Origin: Polytrichum commune
Taxonomy: Eukaryota > Streptophyta > Polytrichopsida > Polytrichales > Polytrichaceae
Direction: 5' to 3'
NCBI GenBank assembly: GCA_950295325.1
Contig: OX485803.1
Coordinates: 32,238,001 to 32,302,000 of the forward strand
Length of the DNA stretch: 64,000 bases
Below the pieces are notes generated by a model. The model ran no database searches. It saw only the letters and a list, made by a program, of their open reading frames with translations, and was not told the DNA's origin. The translations under genes and the position numbers were made by a program. This document shows positions 17,760-64,000 of the stretch, in pieces; the stretch's first letter is position 1, and each line of letters starts with the position of its first letter.

Positions 17760-18995
17760 TTACATCAATTTGCAACCTAGCTGACCTTGTTTAGTGTTTC
17801 CATCTATGATGTGATGCCTCTTTCTTTCCTGTTCCACACCATCTAGTTCTCGTTCTTTTCGTTTCTGCAGCATGTGTTGCTCTTCGTTTCCAATTATGAT
17901 CTCGTGCTTTTCGCTTGCATCTTGTCTGTTGCTTTCATATTCTGCCTCACCTCCCGATGTTTGCATCTCTAAAATCTCTTGCTCTTTCGTTCCATGGAAT
18001 ATTTTCATTTGTTCTGTAACCCATGGATGTTCTTTGAACTCCTTCACTGTCAATCTCTCAGACACATTCATTGTCAACATCTGACTCAAAATATCCTTTG
18101 CACCTTCCGAAACACCATCCCAGAACTTGGATGATGGTATCACGAATTTCTCTCGCTCAAACTCGGTGTGAGCTGTAAGTAGCTTCCTTCTGTCCACGTT
18201 TCCAAAGTTGCTAGTTGCTGTAACTGCCTCTTCAAATGGTTGCTGTCCGCACATGAGGAAGTACATGGTGCATCCGGCGCTCCAGACATCGGCCCGACAA
18301 TCGTAACATTCATGAAGAACTTCTGGAGCTGTGTAGGCCGGGGTGCCCAACGGATCGCTCAACAACTCGATGGGTTGTATAAAACTTGACAACCCAAAAT
18401 CGCACACTTTGATTCCTATCGGCATCTTCTCATTTTTTGGATTATTATTTGTGTAGGGTTGGGTGAGCAAGATGTTCTCCGGCTTGATGTCACGATGCAC
18501 GACGCCTTTTGACTCACATTCGTCGAGTGCCTCCATGACTTGGAGCATCATAACCGCGACTTCAGTCTCTGAGAGGCCTTGTTGGCGCCGCCGTTTGATG
18601 AGATCCCAAAGCGACCCGCCTGCGCAATACTCCATGACGATGTACACGAAATCGGCGTCCTCAAATATGTCGTGGATGGTCACGATGTGGGGGCATCCGC
18701 GCAACGCAATCATAATCATCACTTCCTCATCTATGACTTTCAGGTATTGAGGATCGCGCGTTTTTGTGAATCGCTTGCACGCGTGTTCCGAGTTTGTCTC
18801 GCGATCGTAACATTTGAATACCACGGCGTTGCCACCCCGATCCAATACCTTGTCGGTAAGAATGTAAATGTCCTCCACTTTTCCTGTATCAGCTGAAAAC
18901 ACGTTTAATGGACCATCCGAATTTGAGTTTGTTGTTGTGGAACAATTGTTTTCTGGAGAAGACTCCCACTGCGGTGGTTTATGTGTCACCTCCAT
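17760..18995 (-). CDS. CAMK/CDPK-like serine/threonine kinase, intronless
   Basis: 411 residues from the first in-frame ATG (18995); the frame stays open upstream to about 19075 without an earlier ATG. Kinase domain at about residues 44-325: catalytic Lys74 (ACKRF), HRDIKPEN with Asp169, DFGLSS with Asp199, GTPAYTAPE with Glu225, ADVWSAGC, and subdomain XI SERLTVKEFKEHPWV. This is the CDPK/CaMK pattern of cytosolic or nuclear protein kinases phosphorylating Ser/Thr. The Gly-rich loop reads LDRGGNAVVF, so its first glycine is Asp. The tail after residue 335 is highly charged (KRKERELDGVEQERKRHH, NLS-like) and carries no EF hand, so direct calcium binding is not expected. The N-terminal 43 residues are low-complexity (Asn/Ser/Thr). 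The single exon contrasts with the intron-rich neighbours and may indicate a retrogene; alternatively the upstream in-frame residues belong to a spliced 5' exon. Confidence 0.85.
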   Translation of the reverse strand: MEVTHKPPQWESSPENNCSTTTNSNSDGPLNVFSADTGKVEDIYILTDKVLDRGGNAVVFKCYDRETNSEHACKRFTKTRDPQYLKVIDEEVMIMIALRGCPHIVTIHDIFEDADFVYIVMEYCAGGSLWDLIKRRRQQGLSETEVAVMMLQVMEALDECESKGVVHRDIKPENILLTQPYTNNNPKNEKMPIGIKVCDFGLSSFIQPIELLSDPLGTPAYTAPEVLHECYDCRADVWSAGCTMYFLMCGQQPFEEAVTATSNFGNVDRRKLLTAHTEFEREKFVIPSSKFWDGVSEGAKDILSQMLTMNVSERLTVKEFKEHPWVTEQMKIFHGTKEQEILEMQTSGGEAEYESNRQDASEKHEIIIGNEEQHMLQKRKERELDGVEQERKRHHIIDGNTKQGQLGCKLM

Positions 18996-19075
18996 TTCAA
19001 CAGATACCAAAACTTGGTTGCAGTTACCCAAAATGACCTCAACCTCACCACCTTTGTGAATGATCCATCTCAAGA

Positions 19076-21710
19076 TTCATGAGAGTTGGGATCAGTAAAT
19101 TTGAGCACATGAGAAGCAAAGGGACAAAAAATAAACAGCAGAGATGCCTACACAAAAATAAAGAAAAATAAAAGTTTCATATTTATGAGCACTTGCATGA
19201 CATATCACCAACTAATTAAAAGAAAACATAAGTTTTTTCAATGACGGAAGTTTACTTGTTAATTTACATCAATAATTTAAAAGTATCTATATTTAAATTT
19301 ATTTTTCTTGTGGATTTGTGGGCCCCTGGTGAACTAGGGTTGTTCAACCTCCCTTTTAATTCAAATGCCAACACATTACCGTTAATGTCAAGGGTATTTG
19401 AGTTCACTATCACCAACTTTTTTATTTTAAGCGGCCACTTATTGACGGTGCTTCAACAGGGTAAGCCGTCAGGAAATCATGAGCGTATGTGGTATTAAGG
19501 TAGGTGAGGATTAAATGGGCTAACTTTGGAGTGAAATCGACACTCAATCCATGTCGGCCGCAAAACTTAAAAGTAATTAAATTGTAGATGGTTGTGGATT
19601 TTAATAAATAAATAAAAATTAAAAATTGGGAGTAAAAATCTAGTATGTTAGTTTCGGTTGACTACAAGATCTAGTATGTTGGATCCAATTGACGATAAAA
19701 GAATGACATGTAATTTCATTTTTTTGTTGAGTTTATTAAGAGTTTATTAAGAGTTTTGCAAATGACATCTAGGATGCAACTGACTAGATGGAGAAGCCAT
19801 GTTGAATATCTAGGTAATTAGTAAAACTTGGTCCATTAGATTCATAAACTGCATTGAGAAATTGCAGTTGACACATTCACAATCAACTTAAGAGAGAATA
19901 CAATTCCAATCACAATTGACTACGTTTGCATGTGCATGTCTCGATTATACAAAAAACACTCTCAAATCCATTATTAATTTTGGACAAGCCTTTTGTCCAT
20001 ATTTACTTATATCCTAGTTGATGGGTTTTCGAAAAAAAATTGAATGAAAGCTCACATCAATTGCAAGTTGGTGGAAATGTAAGACTTTCAATGATTGGAT
20101 ATGTCTATTATATAATTATGTGAGATAATCCACACAAAATTTTACACATTTAGATCAATCAGCTTTTGAAAATAGATGATACATTGAATTTAACATAACA
20201 TCCTATTCGTTGGCATATTGAACTCTCATATGTTTGGATGTTGGAGTAAACAACCTATTTATGCTCTTCCAAAATGCATCAACGGTGTTCTTTAATAAAT
20301 TTGATAACCTTATCTCATGCATTGAATTAAATTTTCCAACTTAAGATGGTATATTATGCTCACATCAACTTGATCTTAGATTGTACTCTAAGGGTTAAGG
20401 TGTTGTTAAATATGCGTTCAAATTGTCGAAATATAACTTAGAGCTAAAAACATTGATGTGAAAAAGTTTTAGTTGTTGTGTAAGACTTGTATATGACCTC
20501 CATCATCCATGATTATTATCTAAACATACCATAGTCTCATTTGACCCTCAAGTCTACTTCCTAAATGCTTTTTGTTTTTGTTTTGTTTGGGATCTAAATG
20601 TAGTATGAGACACACTCATCTATGTGCACAATCAAGAAGCAATTTGATATCTTATAATTAGTGTATGTCACACTAACCTATGTGCCCATATTATGGACAC
20701 TTCCAACTCCACATACAATTTGGAGCATTACTAATTAGATTGGATTAGAGTTTATTGCATCTACTTAGTAGTTGTGACTTTAACACAATCGATTCTCCTA
20801 TCAAACCTACAAGCAATTAGAACAAATGTAAATTAATGGTAGAGTAGCAAGTGTGACATTTGATGTCAAGTATCTTACATCCACCCACCAAAAGGTGTCA
20901 GGTGTGTGGGCCTTATGTGGTCAATCTTCTTTATTGGATACCTATAATTGAGCACTAGAGTAGAGTTGCCTATTCCCAATCCAGACCCCATTCGAAACGT
21001 ATAGGGTGCCCTAGTTTCGATTAGGCTGGGACTGAATTTTGATTAGGTTGGGCACTAAATTTTGATCAAGCTAGAACCAATAGTGCCATGACACATGTCC
21101 GTGGTTTGAGTGCTAAAGTGAGGCGGAATGAGTGGTTATGACAAACTCTAGACATTAGCAATATGTTTAGGTCAACTTTTGGCTTCAAAAATTCATAGTA
21201 ATTTCAATTAGAGGAATAAAATTACCATTTTTTTTTCGCAATCCTCCTTATTTCTATCTTCCTACATGGGAAAAAATTGCACCACCTTCTACTTCTCTAG
21301 ATTCGGCACAAAACCTCTTAAGTGATCGGTTATGGACGCCTCTATTCTATATGGCGACGCTTAAAGTTGAGAATGGACTCTAAAAACACATGTGTTACGG
21401 TGAGATTAACCCGTATGCTGGAAATATAGACACCAATCTTAGATCTATGTTCAATTAGGGGTGTGAGCTCTAATATGTGATTATTTTAAATGATATGGAA
21501 TCTTCACTCTTACCTCTTATAACTTATGCATCTCAACATTAACTCAAAGAAAATTGAAATGATAACACAATATTCATTAAAATGAGAGTTTTCCAGTGAA
21601 TTGAGAGTACATAAAGCAAAATATTAATCCAAGAATGAAATGAAAACCACTGGAAAGTTGTAGAGTACAAGTAAAAAAATAACATTTGATTTTCCGCCGT
21701 AAATTCCGCC
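19076..21710. other. Intergenic, AT-rich, no gene seen
   Basis: Upstream of the kinase, so it should hold its promoter. Reading frames are short and stop-dense, with no recognisable family. No clear terminal inverted repeats were found. Confidence 0.5.
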
Positions 21711-41592: not shown

Positions 41593-42284
41593 AAGGGTTG
41601 ATTCTTCAAAATTTTCATTGGTAAATGTCAATTGTTTGAGCCTGGTGCATCACAATTCTAGTTTGCTATTATGGTAGATATTCCTAATTCGGTTACTTAA
41701 CTCAATTGGAGTGGTATGTGGTTTGTTGTGGCTCCAAGGACGGACACCAAAAGACATGTGTCCAAAAAGATTGGATTGTGTGCTAGATATATGAGAACAT
41801 TCCAGCCTCAATAATCAACATATTTTGGGTTGACCTACATGACCATTTAATGAGCACGAGAATCTTGACTCTGATAATGAAGAACAAATTCACATGAGCT
41901 TCAAGTATTACAAGGAAAGTGGCTATGGCCTCGCTTTGGAATTTCTAACCATCTCGTACTAGTTTTCTTCTTTCATATCCTAGGAGAAGTGGGCTAATTC
42001 GAGAAATTAACTGTTTAAGACTCTATATGTAGCAAACTTGGAATGGATGAGATTTGAGATAAAGATTGTGTATAAGGATGTCCTGACTCATGCAAACCTT
42101 TGGCATCAATGAACACGGAGAAATTAGAGCGAACTCGGTTGCCATCCTTATACATAAGTTGATAATAAAGAAACATTAACTGTAATTTTCCCCCAAATAT
42201 GATTTAGTTCAATTCCTAGAATTTTGATCTTGAACTGCTGAATTGGGAAAATGAACTGGTTCATGTGTAACAAGTAGCCGGTTC

Positions 42285-45339: not shown

Positions 45340-45690
45340 GGTAGATGTGCCTAATTCGGTCACTTATATCAATTGGACACCTATATTTGACTCTTTGAGT
45401 GGTATGGGGATTGGTGTGGCTCCAAGAATTGACATCAAAAAGACATGTTTCGAAAAGATTACATTGTGTGCTTGAAATATGATAAACATACTAGGCTCAA
45501 TAATCAACATAATTTGGGAGGACCTATATGATCATTTAATGAGCATGAGAAATTTCACATTGATGATGGATAACATATTCATAAGGGATCCAAAGATTAG
45601 GAGGAAAGTGGCTACAACCTCAATTTGGATTGCCAACCATCTCATATTGATTGTGTGTTTCATATCCTAGGAGAAGTGGGCTTGTTGGAA
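45340..45690 (+). repeat. Dispersed repeat with coding-like text
   Basis: Contains a frame reading LGSIINIIWEDLYDHLMSM then FTLMMDNIFIRDPKIRRKVA. Homologous DNA occurs at about 41690-41990 (plus), 58225-58020, 58870-58790 and 59200-58990 (minus). All copies carry stops or frameshifts. Family not recognised. Confidence 0.5.
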
Positions 45691-53307: not shown

Positions 53308-54087
53308 GTTTCAAGTGGGCTTGTGTAATTGTCCATCGTCCATTACAAACACCTCCAAATGCGAGTTTGTGCAAGGGGTTTGAAGATGGGTGTAGGGGTA
53401 TACAATCTATGCAGTATATGAAATTTGTGTTTCTAAGGTAGAAATGCCATAAGCGGTTAACCACCCTCTAGCTGTGCACTAGACCACCGTCATAATGGTG
53501 AAGTGCCATTTCTAAACAGATCATGGCTCGGCGGCAACTTCAATGCATATACACTTAGTGTAGCCAGTGGGAGTCAAGTGTTAATGTACTCATGAGGTAA
53601 CCAATTTAGGCAATGTTCTGTATGGAAATGAGGATTACCGTGCTCGGTGTAGGTTAAACCTAGTGAACGAGTAGGGGGTTGGACAACTTTCCACTTTGAG
53701 AAATTGTAGCATTTTTTTGTATAGGGCAGAAAAATATGAAACAACTTGCATTCTTCATGAATCCTTGTCGTCTATCTTGGAAAATTATCTCATGATTGTC
53801 AGACCAGATCTTCAATGCGAATCACCTTCTTTTCACGGGTTATGGTATTTCTACCTTGGTATGCAAATGTACATCCTGTTCAATTCTTGAAAGTTGGGAT
53901 CACGAGGTTTAAATGCAAGCACCCTTTGTGGGTTTTTCGAGTGTGTATGTTGATCTCCTCAGCTCTGTTTTAATGCTTTTCTTATCAGCAGCTTTTCTTT
54001 CAGATGAGATCTGGTTTGATTGATTGTAGCCCTGAAGATGAGATTATGACTCATCTTTTTGTGAGTCGTTGAGCTTCTTCATTTCAC
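53308..54087 (+). pseudogene. Inverted partial copy of the HdeD-like gene's 3' end
   Basis: Matches the reverse complement of about 59630-59985: the last coding codons and stop (AAGTGGGCTTGTGTAATTGT), then 3' UTR and downstream DNA through GATGAGATTATGACTCATCT. A 421-bp MITE interrupts it. Without the membrane domains it cannot encode the protein. Confidence 0.8.
53436..53856. mobile_element. TA-target MITE, copy B (421 bp)
   Basis: Ends AGGTAGAAATGCCATAA / inverse of AGGTAGAAATACCATAAC. Body closely similar to copy A at 26273. The empty site is the paralogous HdeD 3' region (reverse complement around 59850-59855), where GTTTCTA is followed directly by GTGTGCAAATG. The left TA is intact; the right TA has become TG. 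Confidence 0.88.
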
Positions 54088-55011
54088 ATTCTGATTTGAC
54101 TTTGTGTATCAAATACAAGAAAGTCTTATCAAGTATTATCAACTTCTGTGTATGTAACATTCATAAACAGGGTAACAATATTTTATCTAACATTCTAAGC
54201 AGGGTACCGCACATGGTATATAAGTTGCTGTATTGCTGAGTGACATTACACGAAGTGTGCATCAGATGACTTCTGATTTCTATACAGCACATTCAGAAGC
54301 ATCAAGACATGATATATATAGTGATTCCAATCCAATATGCTCTAATATTTTGTCATAAAGCCGTAATCATCATACTTCGATCATTCCAAAACATGATTCT
54401 AAGAATAAAGCTTAATATGTCATTCTTTCACAAATCCCACAGTTCCATAGATGAAACTGAGTTCAAGCATCCTACGAATTAGTGAAATTCACTGAATGCT
54501 GGAAGCATCGAAATATTTTGGGTTGACTATAATTGTAGTGATTACCACAACTATTAATCGTACTACCCCTTTGCACACATTCAATAAATTGATCTACCTT
54601 CCTCATAGAACCAAGGGCTTGTCAATCCAAGCGCTGAAATTGTAACTTTGTATCTTGATTCAGTCCCTGCTGTGGTGTATGAGTGCTGCGAGAAATTCTT
54701 CTACACACGTTCACTTGAACCTGTACTCACTCGAATCTGCATGCAGATTATGAGAATGTGTTGGGTCATGTCCATGTTATTTTCCTATCAGTCGGTTGCA
54801 CAATTTGTTACGCGTGCTCGCACTGTAAATACTGTAAAGAACTTCTGCATTCTCTTTCCACAATACACCATTAAGGTAGATGTGCCTTATTGGGATACTG
54901 TTCTCTTTGAACCACTTCTAGTAAGACATGAAACACGCAATCAGTGAGAGATGATTAGTCCCAAATCGTGTCTGTAGCCATTTGCCTCATAATTTTTGGA
55001 GCTCATATGAA
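54088..55011. other. Intergenic, no gene recognised
   Basis: A plus-strand open frame of about 90 codons (54648-54947) has ordinary composition but no recognisable domain. The last 65 bp are a copy of the repeat that was the retroelement's target. Confidence 0.4.
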
Positions 55012-55025
55012 TATCTTCTTCGTTA
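55012..55025 (+). repeat. Target-site duplication, left (retroelement)
   Basis: TATCTTCTTCGTTA, repeated exactly at 58011-58024 on the other side of the retroelement. Confidence 0.88.
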
Positions 55026-57569
55026 GAAAGACAACACAAACATTTTTCAAACATAATTAATGCCTACTTCTCCACAGAACAACATAGAGACACAAGATAC
55101 GTCACACCAACCACAATAATTCCACTAGCACATATCTCTAATAATGAATGCGACCCAGAAAACGACATCGAAACAAACTCTGATACCATCCAAACACAAT
55201 TCGATGTCGCTCACATATACGAAGACAATGGCCGACACCTCATTACCATCCCGAAAGCTAGACTAACATGGCTATGGAAACAATACCAATTGGCAAAAAA
55301 CAACACACACGGTCTAGAACCATCTACCCAATCGTTCGAAACTGAAATTGTTTGGTTATACCAAAGGTACAAATACCGTATCCCAAAAAATGACCCACTC
55401 AAACGAGCCCAATATACAATACCAACCCAAATATTAGATCTCCTGATTACAACATTCAATATTAACCACTCATATTTTTCATCCCCAGTTACATGTCCCA
55501 CACAATTCACCCAATTCTACTCACCATTCTCGCGAGACATAATATTTGGATCCCTAGGTAAAACGTTTGACCATAAATGGCAAGGAATCGGTTACGCACA
55601 CCCTCATAATACAACAGACCTACAACAAGTTATTCACTGGGCGCGCATAGCGGCCCAAAATGATCCATATACAATCACTATACTTATATCTCCGGATACT
55701 AATTGGTACCAAAACTCCAACCCACACACAGGCCCATTCCCAGACACACACGTCATTGCCCATTTCGCCGCTGATACGATCACGTATGAGGAACCCACAA
55801 TACCCCCCGAGCTCAATATCACAAGAAAAGAACCATCTACCATGCAAATATTTTGTATCCATCACCAAAACAATAACATAGGCACCTACGAACAAATGAA
55901 ATTAATAAACGACACAGCAAATAACCTCCAAATACTACAAAGTCACACACAAACTGCACCACCCACCCCTCCAAACATCACCGTTAACCCTAGTAAAAAA
56001 TGGGCTAAATCAAACTACCCAAATACAATCCCACACAATAATACCCCTACCCCACAACTTCCAAACTACCAAACTAACTTACCGCTAAAATTCCACCCCC
56101 AATTTAGCTACTACACAGACGGATCCTTTATAAAACCCAAAGAAATTACCCCTGGGGTATGGAGAAGAGAAAGAGCTGGATACGGTATCTATAGCCCCAA
56201 AGGCTTAAATATCGCCAAAAGACTCCATGGGCATCAAAACATACTACGTGCAGAAATGATGGCTATACACAAAACACTAAGAATCATCAATACAAAATTC
56301 CCTAATGAACCCGTATTCATATTCACAGACAGTCTAAACGTATTATACCTACTCAACACACAAATTAAACACCCCACTCTCCATAATAGTCACCCCGACC
56401 AAACCACACTCAACTCTATGGTAAAAATCCTCCAAGACCGTACACAACCAGTCACACTATACAAAGTCAGAGCACACGTCAACATTGACGGTAATGAAAA
56501 AGCGGATAAACTAGCAAAAGACGGGTTAGAATTAGAACACAGAATTGCCATCCACCCATACGAACATGCCCACGCCATCCCGTATTATTACCAAAAGGAC
56601 GTCTGGGCCTCGATGGCAGACGTCCCAGACAAAGGTCCAGTAAGATTCTTAGAAAAACAAATTAAAAAATATGATAGGGAAACCAATATAGCAATCATGG
56701 CCACACAAACCCCCAACACGTGTAAATGGACAGAAAATATAGACATTGACAAAGAACTGTCCAACGCATTTTGGACAAATCCCTTAATCACAGACAAACA
56801 AAAATCCTGCCTTATTAAATTCCACACAGGAACATACATGGGTAATGCTAAAAAACAAATGTTCTTCGGTCACCAGAGGTACCCCTCTATCACATGCCCT
56901 ATATGCAACTCAAACGATCCAGACACTTGGCTACATGTTCTACTGAAATGCAACCAACAACATATACACTCATTACGAATTAAAAGACATAACAAAGCAG
57001 TCGGAGAAATTAGAAAGCTTCTAATCTCGTCCGAAAAATCCCGATGTTTTACTCTCATGAATGCCGGTACCTTCAATAATAACCCCCAAGAAAATACAGT
57101 CCCCAATTGGCTACTCCCCTGCACATGTAACACACAAAGATGTCATTGCAACGCAAGATTTCGACCTGATATACTCTACATTAAAGGATTACCATATCAA
57201 AATGACCCTCCCATTGACATTGACCCTAACCTCACCATACAATTTATTGAATTCACATATTGTAACGACAGATTTTCCCCAGAAACAATAGAAGCAAAAA
57301 ACAACAAATACAAACCTTTGATTGATAGTATCGCTTCCAGAGGATGGAAAATCGAACCACTTATTGTCATCACAGCTGGGGCCCGAGCTACGGCCCACAT
57401 CCCATCTATGAAAATACTAGAAGAAAATCTCAAAATACCCCTGGTTACCATCAAAAATACCTTTAAAAACATTAATACCATTGCAATACAATATGCCATG
57501 TCCATCCTCCTCCATAAGCGGAGAATTGAAAACCACCAACCGCTCCCCCAAAACTTAGACCCTCCATAA
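55026..57569 (+). pseudogene. LINE polyprotein C-terminal part: RNase H, CCHC knuckle, restriction-like endonuclease
   Basis: An open frame of about 848 codons with no stop and no ATG near its 5' edge. Residues are numbered from the TTG at 55290. RNase H: Asp277 (YTDGS), Glu322 (RAEMM), Asp347 (FTDSLN), His396 and Asp406 (HVNIDGNEKADKLA), a complete catalytic set for cutting RNA in RNA-DNA hybrids. CCHC knuckle: Cys536, Cys539, His549, Cys554, followed by RHN at 566-568. Endonuclease: Arg625-Pro626-Asp627 and Glu654 (FIEFTYCND), the PD-(D/E)XK pattern of R2-like enzymes that nick target DNA. No reverse transcriptase is present. The coding strand is A- and C-rich and poor in G, unlike the host exons. 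The catalytic residues are intact, but the truncated copy has no normal start. Confidence 0.85.
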
Positions 57570-57714
57570 ACCCAAAAAACTTATATAATATTTAGTATCT
57601 ATTGACAGCTCAGAATGAAGGATTGGTGCCGGTTGGTTGGTACAAATTTCCTGCCCTTTACTCACTTGCAGCACCAAGTCACGCGTTACATGTTAGACGA
57701 TCATACGGACTCGA

Positions 57715-57776
57715 CTGAAATCGAACCCGGAACGTCTTAACTCAAACATCCTCCCACAACCAACCGAGGAATCATG
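57715..57776 (-). other. tRNA-like promoter boxes antisense in the retroelement 3' UTR
   Basis: On the minus strand GGTTGGTTGTGGGAGG (A-box-like, with CCTC/GAGG able to form a D-stem) is followed 39 nt later by GGGTTCGATTTC (B-box-like), a spacing close to a real tRNA. The T-stem does not pair well, so this is not a functional tRNA; it could be a relic of a tRNA-derived SINE. Confidence 0.4.
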
Positions 57777-58010
57777 ACTTGGCGTTCACTCTCATAACAA
57801 AAACACTAATTATACCTAAAAGGCAGGCACCACCATGGGCCATGATCGGCCCACGTTATTTGTTTCTCGGTTACTATAGTGTCCATCCTCGAAAGAGGAG
57901 AGTAGTTTTGTCCCAGCTTCCCCATGTCCTGTGGGCATCGGGTTGTTGGCATTACGAACGGACACTCTATTCACGCCGGCCCCTAAAAGGGACCGGAGTT
58001 TCTATCTATC

Positions 58011-59200
58011 TATCTTCTTCGTTATCAAAGTGAAGATTCTCTTGCTCATTCTATAAGTGGTCATATAGGTCCCTTCAAGTATGTTGACTATTGAGCCTAG
58101 AATAGTTAGCATGTTGTCGAGTCTCTTTGAAACATATGCCTTTTTGGTGTCTGTTTTACCTACATACCCTCCAAATGTAAATGTCCAAATTTTTACTGTG
58201 TTGGAATTAGGCACGTCCATGTATCTTATTAGTTGGGTTTGTCCAAGCCAACTAATAACTGATTACAATTTGATTGTCATTGAATTTTCAGTCTGTTGGA
58301 CTTACATCATACATTTGCACTCATCAAATAAGTTGTAATGTGCCGGACATTGACTCATGTCAAACCTTATCGCAACATCATTTCACATTTTTCGCATCAT
58401 TCTGCAGCATTAAAACAAGATATGCAAATAGGTTTTGACTTAGGTGATATTAGCCTTTTGTCATCACCTTAATACTTTTGAGTCTCATAAGCCTTTTGGC
58501 TTCCCGAACTTTGCAATTCCATTTCATTGTTAATCTTCATGCAGAGAGGTGCTGAAGAGTTCTAATATGTGTTTTGGTTAGAATTGCGAGTCCTGATGGC
58601 AATGGAACTTGCTCAGCCGAAACTTTTAGGGCACAGCCATGGCTAAAATAAGAAGCGTGTAGAGAGACAAAAACATTATACTGCACACAATAACTCATGT
58701 AGTTAAGTATCTCAATCACCACCCTCGTACTAATCAAAGAACTTGTAATTGATCAAAACCAAGTCCGAATTGTGTCTGTAGCCATTTGCCATTTGCCTCA
58801 TGATTTTTGGAGTTCATATGAATATCTTATTCATTATCAAAGTGAAGATTTTTGTGCTCATTAAGTGGTAATAAAAGTCTCCTCAATCATGTACCTTAAG
58901 CTGGTTTGATATGGACAGTTTTTAGCTCTCCATCCAATGTTGGTAGATTATGAAACACAAATTAGTGCAATGTGGTTATTGAGTCCTTGTCTGTAGGGAT
59001 TTTCCTCATGACCTTGGGAGCTCCTATGAATGTCTTATTCACTATCAAAGTGAAGCTTGTCTTCCTCATTAAACGATCATATAGGTGCTCCCAATTATGC
59101 TGGCTATGGAGCCTAGAATGGTTAACAAGTTGGGAATAAATTTTGAGAACATAGGCCAATCTCTTTATGAACATATGTCTTATTTAGTGTCCATTCTTAG
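58011..59200. repeat. Three related repeat units flanking the retroelement
   Basis: The block (GTGTCTGTAG..., TTTGGAGTTCATATGAATAT, ATCAAAGTGAAG) occurs as the split target (54960-55025 plus 58011-58080), at 58760-58870, and more diverged at 58980-59110. They belong to the same family as 45340-45690. Confidence 0.65.
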
Positions 59201-59960: not shown

Positions 59961-62119
59961 TTACGCAAGCCCACTTTGAGCCAAAAGTGGTTGATGAGTC
60001 TCCTTGGCCTTGTGACCTGCACGAACATTTTTCCATTTCCAAGTAAATTTCCAGGTGAAGAACGAAGATATTCGGTCACTGGGTATGCATGAACGCAAAG
60101 AAAATGGCATATTCTCGCAGAAGTAGAAAAATAAATCCAAGGAAACACTTTTCAAATTTTTGAGAGTCTTCGAAGGAAAGCATACCGAGACGGGCCATGA
60201 AAGCAATGAGAAGGAGAGCCACAGATGTCAGGATCAGGTCGGAACCAACGAAAATGCCAAGAAGCTTGATGGATTCCTTGAACATCCAAGAGCTTAGGGC
60301 CAAAATCACAAATGCCAGAATGACGGACACAAGCCCGCTCACCAACACTGCAGGCCAGGTCGCCATCTGCCGCACTTGGCATGCCATCAACAACTTCAAC
60401 ACACCCTGAACTCGGCACAAATTCCAACACACAGCTCAGCAGTGAGAATTTACACCAGGCACCTGTATTATCCCATTGAGTTAAGAACAAGCTTGCACCA
60501 TCAAAAATAACAGCCATCCAGTTAAAAGTTCAAAAAGTGCGTTTGGCCCTACTACAATGACTTCATCGTATAACAAATCCCACTATTCTGATAAGAAACC
60601 TGATAAGATTGGTTCAATTTATGATCAAGCATCGTGGAAGGCTGCAATCGAATATGATCTTGAAATGATCAAACTAATAAAATGTGTCTTGAGATGCGAA
60701 CACTTCATGAGGCATAAAGGATAACTATGCACAAACTTTTCTGATGAAGCTTTTGGAGTTGACAGAACTTTGATACCTCTGTTTAAGGAGATCAGTTAAT
60801 TAAAAATAATTATCTTTTAGCAAGATCCAATCATTTGAAGTTTACTCCCATTTTGAGACGTTTAAACCATTCAGGGTTAAGATTGTAGCAATCCAATCCA
60901 AAGACAATAGTTCCATTCTGAAAGGATTCCAAAATGTTCACAGATGATCTCGTATCTGTATCAGAACTCATTATCATTATCAAGTCTCTCAAAACCTCAT
61001 GTTTTAGTAGGGAGTTTTGCCCCACTTTTGACATTTGACATTTTATAATGTTTAAGGAACGCTAAGTGGTATTGAAAACCTCACTGCTGGTGAAATGCCG
61101 TAATCCGTAACCGTCGTCTTTTGGACGAAGTCAAATTCTTCCCCTTCATTTCACCGGCAGTGAGGTTTTCAATACCACTTGAGCGCTCTCTAAACATTGT
61201 AAAATGTCAAAAGGGCGAAACTCCCTACCAGATCAGGAGTTTTTGAGAGACTTCAAGGAGATAACTCTGATACTCAGACAGAGAGAAGGGGGAGTCAAGT
61301 TCTGAAATCTCACATGGATGAGGAACCAGCCGGCAATGATGAAGATGAGCATGGTAGGGTTGGGGACAGGCTGCAGCAGCATCCACAACCCCACACCCAA
61401 ATGCAAGGCGCCGAGGAGCAGGAATGCTGTGGTTCCAGGTGCACCACACACAAGGATGAACTGCAGGAGCGTGACACCTCCACCAGCTACCAGCAACCAT
61501 GCCAGTAGCTGGTCAAGGGGAAAGTTGAAGAAAAGTGGCAGCACAATTGCTACAGCTCCAACAACTCCAAACACGAGAGCGTAGATCGTGTAGTAAAGTG
61601 ATAACCTTTGCAAGTGCTCATCGGCCACCTGCATTGAATCCATCCTCCAGAATAAACCTTCAGCATCTCATCAACATGTCTGGGGTTAAACAATTTCAGT
61701 CAAGCTACACATACACCGACAGAGCAGGAATTGCACCCGCTCTAGTAATGCTGTAATCTTTGCATTGATTCAATCCTCCAAAAGAAAACGTAGCATCTCA
61801 TCAAATCACAATGATAACCCTGACACTAACACTGCTTGAATTGCTGACAAGCCATGGTGAGGCCATGCAACTCCAAAAATTACATGGCGTTTCGCAACAG
61901 ATCACAGTCCATGGAACGGAGTGTATGTTATTGCCGAAGCAAAACTTCATCAAATGGTGATGTGTAATCAGGGTACGAGATGAAAGACCCTCATAAGAAA
62001 TAAATCAATACCTGGCCGGTGAGAGGGTGAATTGGGATGTTGACATAGTACGTCCGCTCATCCGGCATCCGAACTTCCGGCCGCTGCTCCGGTACTTCAT
62101 TATAATTGCCGTCCGCCAT
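59961..62119 (-). CDS. HdeD/DUF308-family six-helix membrane protein, four coding exons
   Basis: Exons on the minus strand: 62119-62012, 61628-61314, 60405-60186, 60016-59961 (699 nt, 232 residues, GT-AG junctions, phases agree). The start MADGNYNEVPEQRPEV follows an in-frame TAA. A hydrophilic N-terminus (1-44) precedes six predicted helices at about 46-70, 76-96, 102-122, 127-148, 157-177 and 187-209, with Gly-rich helix pairs as in the DUF308 tandem repeat (LLVAGGGVTLLQF, LGALHLGVGLWMLL, WFLIHGVLKLL). The C-terminal tail HKAKETHQPLLAQSG is polar. Bacterial HdeD is an inner-membrane protein linked to acid resistance; the role in a plant is unknown. Intron 2 (61313-60406) contains a hairpin MITE. 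The family assignment rests on length and helix layout, not on a search. Confidence 0.8.
61010..61225. mobile_element. Hairpin MITE inside an HdeD-gene intron
   Basis: Ends GGGAGTTTTGCCCC / inverse of GGGAGTTTCGCCC, with arms continuing about 85 bp on each side (e.g. TAAGTGGTATTGAAAACCTC inverted) and only a ~40-bp loop. TA flanks both ends (61008-61009, 61226-61227). It lies wholly in intron 2, so coding is untouched, but the pre-mRNA would carry a long hairpin. Confidence 0.85.
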
Positions 62120-62156
62120 CTTTCACTTAAGCGTCTCCTTCCTCAGCCTCTGACTT
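62120..62156 (-). other. Probable 5' UTR part of the HdeD-like gene's ATG exon
   Basis: A TTTGTTCACAG acceptor ends at 62157 and the sequence up to the ATG contains an in-frame TAA, so this is read as 5' UTR joined to an upstream non-coding exon. Confidence 0.4.
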
Positions 62157-62454
62157 CTGTGAACAAACCCCGATCATGTTTCTGAGTACTGAATTATGAA
62201 AGATCTTGCAGACCATAACTAACTTGGAGAGAGAGTTCTGAAATAATATAAAATCATTACTACCATCATACTTTCTGCATAGGGATAGCAAGCATCCGGT
62301 GGTAGCTAGCTGCATATTAGACTTGGATGATAAGATCCCCCTGTTTCATCCAAAATCTTTCTAAAGTCACATTGAGCACTAGATCACCTCCAGAGCAAAA
62401 CTCTTCCTCAAATTGAATGCACAACAGCTCTGAATGTGATCACCAAGCTAATAA

Positions 62455-63295
62455 TTGGAATGACACCAGCTTCCAGACAGAACCTAAGTTAAACTTCTTC
62501 ATCTCGGATTTGCATAAGTTGCTTGCAAAAGTGGTTCTCCTGGCCTTACGCTTCAGGCAGGCAAGACTCGAACCATGTCAAGATGCACTTTCACCAGAAC
62601 ACTGAAACTGTAAAACATGCATACACAAAAACGACATCCACGTACGCACTTGAGTTGAAGAAAGAGCGTAAAGAATTATTCAATTCAAGATGGCAGCAGC
62701 ATCCAGACACAACCTAAATTTCGTCATCTTGGATTTAGCACACGTTCACTTCAAAAGTGGTTCAATCTAAACCATCTCAAGATGCACTATCTCAACTCAT
62801 GCCAAGATGCACTTTCGCCAAAACACTAGAAAAATACATAAACAAGAACTGCACCACTTGAATTGCAGAAAGAGCGTTAACAGAATTTGAATTCCAGATG
62901 GCATCAGCCTCCCTACACAACCTAAAATTTCTTCATCTCGGATTTAGCATACGTTCACTTCCCAAATTGGTTCTATCCAAACCATGTCATGATGCACTAT
63001 TTCAACTCATGCCAAGACACATTTTCGCCATACCACTGAAACATATATACACAAGGACTCCACCACTTGAGGTGTGGAAACAGCGTATAAGCCGTTTGAA
63101 TTTCAAGATGACATCAGCCTCCAGACACAACCTGGATTTACTCATCTTGGATTTAGCACACGTTCACTTCAAAACTGTTTCTCCCTAACCATGTCAAGAT
63201 GCACATCCAAGCTCATTCCAAGAAGCACTTCCGCCAAAAACGCTAAAACATACAGACACGAGAACTATACCACTTGACTTGTGTGGATAGAGAGA
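62455..63295. repeat. Four-copy tandem repeat, period about 209 bp
   Basis: The landmark TCATCTYGGATTTRGCAYACG recurs near 62498 (diverged), 62725, 62933 and 63141, with CCAAGATGCACTTTCGCCA and CACCACTTGA following in order. It lies upstream of the HdeD ATG, probably within a 5' UTR intron. The copies are imperfect (visibly diverged, with small indels). Confidence 0.85.
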
Positions 63296-63616
63296 GACTT
63301 TTTAAATTATTATTAAATTAAAAACATCTGAATTCAAGTCCCTTGAAACCACTGGCAGATTTTATTTTCGCATAACTCACACTACGTGCACAACAGCTCT
63401 GAATCATTATGGCACTCAAACAAGCTACCGGAAGAATTACAAGGGGTTACGCTTCCAAATTGGCAGTCAGACAGCCAGAACTCCAGGGTCGTGCCTACTA
63501 CCTCAACAACTCCCGATAGCACGAAATTTAGCTTAAAACCTCAAACAGAGTACAATCCACACGCAGACACAACAAAAAAGAAAACTACATACATGCAGGC
63601 AGCTAAGGTACTTTAC

Positions 63617-63793
63617 CTGCACTTTGGTGGCGGATCTGCAGTGGTATGCCCTCCAGAAAGATGCCAAAAGCGGCTGCCGACTCTCCGTCGTTGGCGTGCG
63701 CTGATGCGTCGCAAGAGGCGGGAGAGGTGAGAAATTTGGAGGATCGCATTCTCAAGTGGAGAGATGGGGAGGTTTTGTCAAGGGCTGGGAAGC

Positions 63794-63800
<7 letters not shown>
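63617..63800 (-). promoter_or_regulatory. Candidate first (non-coding) exon of the HdeD-like gene
   Basis: A GC-rich stretch ends at a good donor (GTGCAG|GTAAAG, boundary 63617/63616) on the minus strand, just downstream of a long CT tract of the kind common in plant 5' UTRs. An ATG at about 63751 opens a frame (MRSSKFLTSPASCDAS...) that would stop a few codons after splicing to 62156, i.e. an upstream ORF of about 50 codons. It could instead be the first exon of an unrelated gene. Confidence 0.35.

Positions 63801-63844
<44 letters not shown>
63796..63844. repeat. (GA)n/(CT)n tract
   Basis: About 24 uninterrupted GA units on the plus strand; CT on the strand of the HdeD-like gene. Confidence 0.92.
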
Positions 63845-63850
<6 letters not shown>

Positions 63851-64000
63851 GAGAGCGCGAGACGGACGAACAGGCCAACTGGAGGAGCAGGCCATGCAGG
63901 TGCCACGCGGCCAAGGTGGGGTGACGCGTGGCCAAAGTTGTGGGCCACGTAGACGTATACGCGAGACGCCGGATGCCATGTCAGCTCTGGAATCGACGCC
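63845..64000. other. GC-rich flank, probable promoter
   Basis: GC content rises sharply with several ACGCG/CACG motifs (GTGACGCGTGGC, GCCACGTAGACG). CACGTG-like cores are common in plant promoters; orientation and target gene are not settled. Confidence 0.3.

What the first reader, a model, noticed from the sequence alone, without database searches (positions are those of the whole stretch)
55026..58010. LINE fragment combining RNase H with a restriction-like endonuclease
The frame has an apparently complete RNase H catalytic set, a CCHC knuckle and a PD-(D/E)XK-type endonuclease. Typical angiosperm LINEs carry an APE endonuclease instead. RNase H plus restriction-like endonuclease recalls Dualen/RandI elements known from green algae. 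The frame has no stops over about 848 codons, so the insertion looks young and full-length relatives may still be active in this genome.
Basis: partly seen in the sequence, partly recalled or inferred. Interest (0 to 1): 0.72.

Follow-up and report, generated by a model that had tools for sequence, protein, structure and literature searches.

The report
Dual-endonuclease LINE with cap-methyltransferase-like domain
This is the 3' end of a very long, recently inserted jumping gene of a land plant that carries two different DNA-cutting enzymes and, unexpectedly, a domain related to the enzyme that methylates the start of animal mRNAs, with its active-site motif replaced.

Summary
Window 55026-58010 is a 5'-truncated non-LTR retrotransposon with a 14-bp target-site duplication, a (TCTA)n tail and an open 847-codon frame. 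RNase H, CCHC knuckle and an R2-like restriction-like endonuclease (RLE) are there. Copies elsewhere in the genome settle the architecture: three of 12.0-12.7 kb have an ORF1 and a 2,625-codon ORF2 with a 2A-like peptide, APE endonuclease, RT, a further domain, RNase H, CCHC and RLE. New is the further domain: a homologue of PCIF1/CAPAM, the cap-specific adenosine N6-methyltransferase (Pfam PF12237, E down to 8e-14; in a blind, low-confidence fold CAPAM ranks first, tied with RlmJ). Its catalytic NPPF reads AHPH in 42 of 46 fetched loci and NPP in none; 368 genomic sites match the codon pattern, 0 reversed. dN/dS 0.10 shows that it is maintained. I read it as a repurposed RNA-5'-end/cap-binding module; that function is inferred. 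The host has a chloroplast genome and looks bryophyte-like rather than angiosperm. Whether algal Dualen carries the domain could not be checked, and no RT tree with Dualen was possible.

The parts
55012..55025 (+). 5' copy of the 14-bp target-site duplication TATCTTCTTCGTTA
   Evidence: repeats at window 58788-58862 and elsewhere show the same flanks without the insert
55026..58010 (+). 5'-truncated Dualen-type non-LTR retrotransposon copy (2,985 bp of a 12.0-12.7 kb element)
   Evidence: 97.3-98.0% DNA identity to three full-length copies
55026..57569 (+). open 3' part of ORF2, 847 codons plus TAA
55203..56015 (+). PCIF1/CAPAM-like methyltransferase-fold domain (core PF12237 match 55299-55589; loop GYAHPHN at 55590-55610 in place of the NPPF loop)
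56106..56528 (+). RNase H domain, D-E-D-H-D set
56895..56951 (+). CCHC knuckle C-x2-C-x9-H-x4-C
56955..57527 (+). R2-like restriction-like endonuclease (RPD, E, K-x2-KY)
57120..57149 (+). second invariant cysteine cluster CxC-x4-CxC directly before the RPD motif
57570..58000 (+). 3' UTR ending in a short GC hairpin (57976-57996)
   Evidence: the stem letters differ between families
58001..58010 (+). (TCTA)n tail
   Evidence: tails of this type in 14 of 14 copies examined
58011..58024 (+). 3' copy of the target-site duplication (first bases ambiguous with the tail)

Best explanation
The feature is a 5'-truncated, recent insertion of a Dualen-type LINE. The full element is 12.0-12.7 kb, with an ORF1 and an ORF2 polyprotein: 2A-like peptide, APE, RT, PCIF1-like domain, RNase H, CCHC, RLE. 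It most likely moves by target-primed reverse transcription: an element endonuclease nicks the target, RT starts at the 3' hairpin/(TCTA)n end of the RNA, a second nick 12-14 bp away gives the duplication, and RNase H removes template RNA (inferred from knowledge of LINEs). With two conserved endonucleases, each may cut one strand (inferred). The PCIF1-like domain keeps the methyltransferase fold but not the NPPF adenine-methylation loop; I propose that it is a reader of the RNA 5' end or cap that holds full-length element RNA on the polyprotein (inferred, the weakest step, about 0.3).
For: Full-length copies: 3 of 53 scored copies have a 2,625-codon frame and are flanked by three different 12-bp duplications. 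Domains: RVT_1 E 1e-29, RNase_H and PCIF1_WW above cut-off; Exo_endo_phos above cut-off in the L012 family (25.5 against 24.5 bits), E 8.8e-4 in L010, exodeoxyribonuclease III model E 0.0038 in L009; APE motif residues present. RLE fold: R2 first. PCIF1: window E 7.1e-11, L009 3.6e-10, best 8.2e-14; blind model: human CAPAM first at Z 7.4, six CAPAM entries at 6.3-7.4, RlmJ group at 6.8-7.4, next rows 4.4 and lower. Selection, L009 against L013: dN/dS APE 0.068, RT 0.059, PCIF1-like 0.102, RNase H 0.058, CCHC+RLE 0.089, against 0.511 in the pre-2A stretch and 0.482 in the PCIF1-RNase H linker. Loop: AHPH in 42 of 46 fetched loci that hold the site, AHPP, AHPY, GHPY and AYPH in one each, NPP in none; 368 degenerate-codon matches in the genome, 0 for the reversed control.
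Against: No RT tree with real Dualen sequences could be made. APE is weak by sequence: L009 and L013 gave no PF03372 line at E<=1, L010 is below cut-off, and the solved-structure match is 14.5 bits, E 0.17. The R2 and bunyavirus rows are tied, and a profile of the RLE region found no solved-structure sequence up to E 10. The PCIF1 model is poor (mean pLDDT 50.8; Z 7.4 is middling, rmsd 7.5 A; RlmJ ties with lower rmsd), and the profile match to CAPAM sequences is weak (E 0.078). 20 of the 21 members of A4 were picked by the PF12237 search, so 21 of 21 matching is mostly circular. Against cap reading in particular: a review assigns cap binding to the helical domain of PCIF1 (PMC10544176, passage), while my matches lie in the methyltransferase part (fold range 426-668). 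Expression and activity untested.
Confidence: 0.85

Rival explanations
1. The PCIF1-like domain is still a working methyltransferase with a changed catalytic loop (A-H-P-H-N/T), perhaps with another base or substrate.
For: Fold kept, dN/dS 0.10, loop nearly invariant across families with 57-93% protein identity; RlmJ, an rRNA adenine methyltransferase, also scores Z 7.4.
Against: The residue aligned to Asn of NPPF is His in 45 of 46 loci and Tyr in one; disrupting NPPF reduces or abolishes PCIF1 activity (PMC6318281, PMC10544176, passages).
Confidence: 0.25
2. An R2/NeSL-type LINE that independently gained APE, RNase H and the PCIF1-like domain: a convergent dual-endonuclease element, not Dualen.
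For: RT scores higher with R2 (110 bits) than with L1 (59 bits) among solved structures; RLE fold rows begin with R2.
Against: APE plus RLE plus RNase H plus non-A tail is what is reported for Dualen/RandI; one origin is simpler. No Dualen is in that structure library to compete.
Confidence: 0.12
3. Ordinary plant L1 LINE with misread C-terminal motifs.
For: Has APE, RT and RNase H in ORF2.
Against: RLE fold found without templates; RNase H has H484, not the Arg reported for the archaeal type of plant L1 (PMC4640811, passage); (TCTA)n tail, not poly(A).
Confidence: 0.02
4. Assembly chimera or fused host gene.
For: Unusual combination of domains.
Against: 53 scored copies (of 7,060 first-look candidates) on contigs C1-C7 carry the same C-terminal arrangement; three intact copies have distinct duplications.
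Confidence: 0.01

Closest known systems
Dualen/RandI non-LTR retrotransposons (Chlamydomonas and other green algae)
   Same: Both APE and a PD-(D/E)XK-like endonuclease (definition in PMC3636483, passage), RNase H reported for the group (PMC4640811, passage), 3' tails of non-A repeats (PMC3747384, table passage)
   Different: Land-plant host; PCIF1-like domain between RT and RNase H, not mentioned for Dualen in the passages that I read. The original description (Kojima and Fujiwara 2005) is not held, so it is unknown whether algal elements have the domain
R2 retrotransposons
   Same: RLE fold, CCHC before it, RPD...E...K layout; RT closest among solved structures
   Different: R2-group elements have RT and a PD-(D/E)XK-like endonuclease without APE (PMC3636483, passage) and R2 is site-specific; no RNase H or PCIF1-like domain (recalled); this element is dispersed
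PCIF1/CAPAM cap-specific adenosine N6-methyltransferase
   Same: PF12237 match above cut-off, F(S/A)SP-x2-C...FGS-x-G segment, methyltransferase fold
   Different: NPPF replaced, mostly by HPHN/HPHT; no WW family listed in the scans; matches lie in the methyltransferase part, the cap-binding helical domain is not evidenced; embedded in a LINE polyprotein
Plant L1 with archaeal-type RNase H
   Same: APE, RT and RNase H in ORF2
   Different: Here RNase H has His, an RLE follows, and the tail is (TCTA)n

Membership tests
Dualen/RandI | APE and PD-(D/E)XK endonuclease in the same polyprotein | tested here: met
   APE: (weak by sequence in L009, above cut-off in L012); RLE; one 2,625-codon frame in L009-L011
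Dualen/RandI | RNase H | tested here: met
   PF00075 E 7.3e-13 in L009
Dualen/RandI | 3' tail of short repeats other than (A)n | tested here: met
   (TCTA)n-type in 14 of 14 copies; 8 of 8 green-algal RandI families in the table of PMC3747384 have other repeats
Dualen/RandI | RT phylogenetic position with RandI elements | not testable with these tools
   No Dualen/RandI sequence found in what is held; scans of viral contigs gave no relative
R2 group | RLE with CCHC, no APE | tested here: not met
   RLE and CCHC present but APE is present as well
R2 group | insertion at one specific site | tested here: not met
   14 copies have 14 different 3' flanks; duplications differ
PCIF1/CAPAM | PF12237 domain | tested here: met
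   150 of 150 scored places above cut-off (697 candidates)
PCIF1/CAPAM | NPPF catalytic motif | tested here: not met
   AHPH 42, AHPP 1, AHPY 1, GHPY 1, AYPH 1 of 46 fetched loci with the site; the other places of the genome were not read for other variants
PCIF1/CAPAM | N-terminal WW domain | tested here: inconclusive
   No WW family listed at E<=1 in the scans of ORF2
Plant L1 | archaeal-type RNase H with Arg for His | tested here: not met
   H484 invariant in the 11 aligned sequences
2A/StopGo peptide | (D/G/C/N)(V/I)ExNPGP (PMC12846837, abstract passage) | tested here: met
   DIEPNPGP in L009-L011 and DIETNPGP in L012; the L013 family departs, DIKPNPGP; cleavage not tested

The most novel reading that the evidence does not exclude
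A LINE lineage captured a cap-specific adenosine methyltransferase, lost its NPPF chemistry, and fixed a new AHPH loop, so that the polyprotein reads the 5' end (cap) of its own RNA and couples integration to full-length template, or carries out a new modification there.
Probability: 0.27. Interest if true: 0.85.

Novelty: new variant of a known kind. Interest (0 to 1): 0.62.

Why it matters
It places a dual-endonuclease LINE, known to me from green algae, in a land plant with dozens of scored copies at 94-98% identity and some intact frames, so that the question of what each endonuclease does becomes testable in a plant. I found no report of a PCIF1-like domain in a retrotransposon (searches, open-licence papers only): it would link the mRNA-cap machinery to LINE integration and add a branch to the PCIF1 family with a changed active site.

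Tried and rejected
Tried without result: a profile of the RLE region matched no solved-structure sequence up to E 10, so the RLE claim rests on fold and motifs. The profile of the PCIF1-like region matched CAPAM only weakly by sequence (E 0.078 and 0.09). Viral-contig scans with the C-terminal alignment, the RT alignment and the AHPH pattern found no relative. The same pattern in prokaryote genomes gave 5 places; none is a convincing relative (best E 0.009 over 20 residues around the pattern), so I take them as chance. ORF1 has no Pfam family above cut-off and only weak, implausible solved-structure matches (best E 0.042). Duplications were not found for L012, L013 and L014: their ORF1 runs off the fetched stretch, so their 5' ends are not known. 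dN/dS for the seven pairs other than L009-L013 rests on synonymous distances mostly above 1; the PCIF1-like values there, 0.096-0.173, are in line but not relied on. My first tally of the loop by a text pattern (41 sites) missed some loci, among them L003 with AYPH; one search replaces it. The original Dualen paper is not held. Paper searches for Dualen/RandI in land plants listed nothing to the point. I considered and rejected an L1 with misread motifs and an assembly chimera. After re-checking, the probability of the novel case was lowered from 0.3 to 0.27, because the cap-binding helical domain of PCIF1 is not evidenced here.

Full report
What is in the window. The joined flanks match other repeats in the window that lack the insert, best 91% over 75 bases at 58788-58862, also 58988-59132, 45485-45616 and 41796-41925: an empty site of a local repeat family.

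Restriction-like endonuclease. A template-free AlphaFold model made from 11 window/genome sequences was poor as a whole (mean pLDDT 41.6) and confident mainly at the C-terminus (blocks of 62-87 between residues 651 and 820, with dips to 39 and 49). Against solved structures its first six rows are R2 proteins: 9nl2 Z 10.2 (rmsd 7.1, 167 residues), 9nl3 10.0, 8ibz 9.8 (rmsd 3.1, 147 residues, 16% identity), 9dou 9.8, 8iby 9.7, 8ibw 9.7; bunyavirus cap-snatching endonucleases follow at up to 9.4, which the tool counts as a tie. Both share the PD-(D/E)XK fold (recalled). CCHC residues C624, C627, H637, C642 are invariant in the 11 sequences, and P714-D715, E742, K758, K761-Y762 in 8 of 8. A profile search by sequence found nothing, so the case rests on fold, motifs and position.

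Full-length copies. The genome (407.8 Mb, 64 contigs) gave 53 scored copies out of 7,060 first-look candidates; the 52 besides the window copy are 94-98% identical in protein, and 3 of 53 lie in a frame of 2,625 codons. The 3' UTR gave 1,880 first-look candidates, of which 40 were scored, 39 at 97-98% and the window copy itself. I fetched the three long ones (L009-L011) and their upstream DNA. Each is flanked by a different 12-bp duplication, giving elements of 12,490, 11,965 and 12,702 bp. They share 99.3-99.6% DNA identity in the main alignments, and the window copy is 97.3-98.0% identical to them. Their 5' parts differ in extent and contain tandem repeats (98-base unit in L011; 18/54- and 48-base units in L009).

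Architecture of ORF2 (L009 numbering). 2A-like GDIEPNPGP at 277-285; APE motifs N507, Q535-E536, Y628, G662-D663-F664-N665, D722, S746-D747-H748 (positions; roles recalled from APE/L1 endonucleases); RT 1121-1387 (E 1e-29); PCIF1_WW 1871-1966; RNase H 2139-2279; then CCHC and RLE. The APE call is above Pfam's cut-off in the L012 family (25.5 against 24.5 bits), below it in L010 (19.5 bits, E 8.8e-4), and not listed for L009 or L013; for L009 exodeoxyribonuclease III models match weakly (E 0.0038; 14.5 bits, E 0.17). Together with the motif set and a dN/dS of 0.068 I take APE as present. ORF1 (747 codons open in L009-L011, at least 1,189 in L012) is 40% identical over 400 residues between L009 and L012 and has no Pfam family above cut-off.

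The PCIF1-like domain. PF12237 gave 150 scored places out of 697 candidates in this genome, all 150 over the curated cut-off. I fetched divergent families. All 21 members of an alignment with 57-93% identity to the window copy match PF12237, best E 8.2e-14, and no other family matches more than 2 of 21; but 20 of the 21 had been chosen by that model, so the count is mostly circular. Not circular are the window copy, L009 and L010. Independently, a template-free model of this region (mean pLDDT 50.8) has human CAPAM (PCIF1; 6irv) as its top row at Z 7.4 (rmsd 7.5 over 188 residues), six CAPAM entries at 6.3-7.4, the rRNA adenine methyltransferase RlmJ and a relative at 6.8-7.4 with lower rmsd, and then a drop to 4.4. 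Z under 8 is middling by the tool's own note; the agreement of two methods is the argument.

Its active site. In the profile alignment to human CAPAM, ANPPF of the catalytic loop faces AHPHN of the element. Among the 54 loci held from this genome, 46 hold the site: AHPH 42, AHPP 1 (L012), AHPY 1 (L047), GHPY 1 (L020), AYPH 1 (L003) (L001 is the window copy, and L002-L011 are its near relatives). In the whole genome the degenerate codon pattern for WxGxGYAHPH has 195 + 173 exact matches, and 0 + 0 when read backwards. Disrupting NPPF reduces or abolishes PCIF1 activity (PMC6318281 and PMC10544176, passages). So ordinary m6Am chemistry is unlikely here, while the fold and this loop are selected. 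[quoted passage not shown] my matches lie in the methyltransferase part (426-668 in 6irv), which counts against a simple transfer of cap binding.

Selection. Between L009 and L013, the one pair with unsaturated synonymous sites throughout (dS 0.29-0.69), dN/dS is 0.068 APE, 0.059 RT, 0.102 PCIF1-like, 0.058 RNase H, 0.089 CCHC+RLE, against 0.511 in the stretch before 2A and 0.482 in the linker between PCIF1-like and RNase H. The weakly constrained stretches are internal controls. The domains, both endonucleases and the PCIF1-like one, are therefore kept.

3' end and targets. 14 of 14 copies examined (window, L002-L014) end in a (TCTA)n-type tail after a short GC hairpin whose letters differ between families. 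Their 14 3' flanks are all different, so there is no site specificity at this scale.

Relation to known elements. Dualen/RandI is defined by coding for both APE and a PD-(D/E)XK-like endonuclease (PMC3636483, passages), is listed among elements with RNase H (PMC4640811, passages), and green-algal RandI families have non-A tails, 8 of 8 (PMC3747384, table passage). The present element meets all three. RT position could not be tested, as I found no Dualen sequence in what is held; among solved RTs it scores 110 bits with R2 and 59 with human L1. The archaeal-type RNase H of plant L1 is excluded by H484, where PMC4640811 reports Arg. I found no PCIF1-like domain in a retrotransposon in print: searches (listings, with passages of PMC7824862, which mentions phage methylases close to PCIF1; open-licence papers only). 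The original Dualen paper is not held.

Host. Contig C8 has rbcL, trnR-CCG and a 315-codon frame that I read as accD in a row, and rpoA about 19 kb away. I recall this order from bryophytes; the species was not identified.

Mechanism and its status. Shown: domain content, selection, duplications, tail, 5' truncation of the window copy. Inferred from knowledge of LINEs: target-primed reverse transcription, RNase H removal of template. Inferred and open: division of labour between two endonucleases; 2A-like release of the ORF2 leader; PCIF1-like domain as an RNA-5'-end or cap reader (about 0.3 for that step) or as an altered methyltransferase (0.25).

Noticed in passing
L032:3-3500 and L009:8703-9989 (-): ORF1 protein conserved at 40% over 400 residues between families, no Pfam family above cut-off; fold unknown.
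   Followed up: partly
L029:1588-1770, L029:2279-2377, L031:2092-2302: Tandem repeats near the 5' ends of L009 and L011 and 5' ends of different extent, reminiscent of monomer-type LINE promoters (recalled).
   Followed up: partly
window 57120-57149: Second invariant cysteine cluster CxC-x4-CxC just before the RPD motif of the RLE.
   Followed up: no
window 54001-58000: The coding strand of the element is A/C-rich (GC skew -0.25 to -0.28, AT skew +0.11 to +0.24); AT skew of about +0.16 recurs at 60001-64000 without explanation.
   Followed up: no
window 41796-41925, 45485-45616, 58788-58862, 58988-59132: Dispersed local repeat family into one copy of which the LINE inserted.
   Followed up: partly
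window 17763-19076 (-): Uninterrupted 438-codon frame with a protein kinase domain (PF00069 E 1e-63), probably a host gene.
   Followed up: no
L009-L014 with L029-L034, junction of ORF1 and ORF2: ORF1 and ORF2 overlap by 22-88 bases in different frames; how ORF2 is started is unclear, since the stretch before the 2A-like peptide is weakly constrained.
   Followed up: partly
L013 and L014 (G000 C4 and C1): Two copies of another family are 99.7% identical over 12,696 bases on different contigs with different 3' flanks: recent movement in that family too.
   Followed up: no
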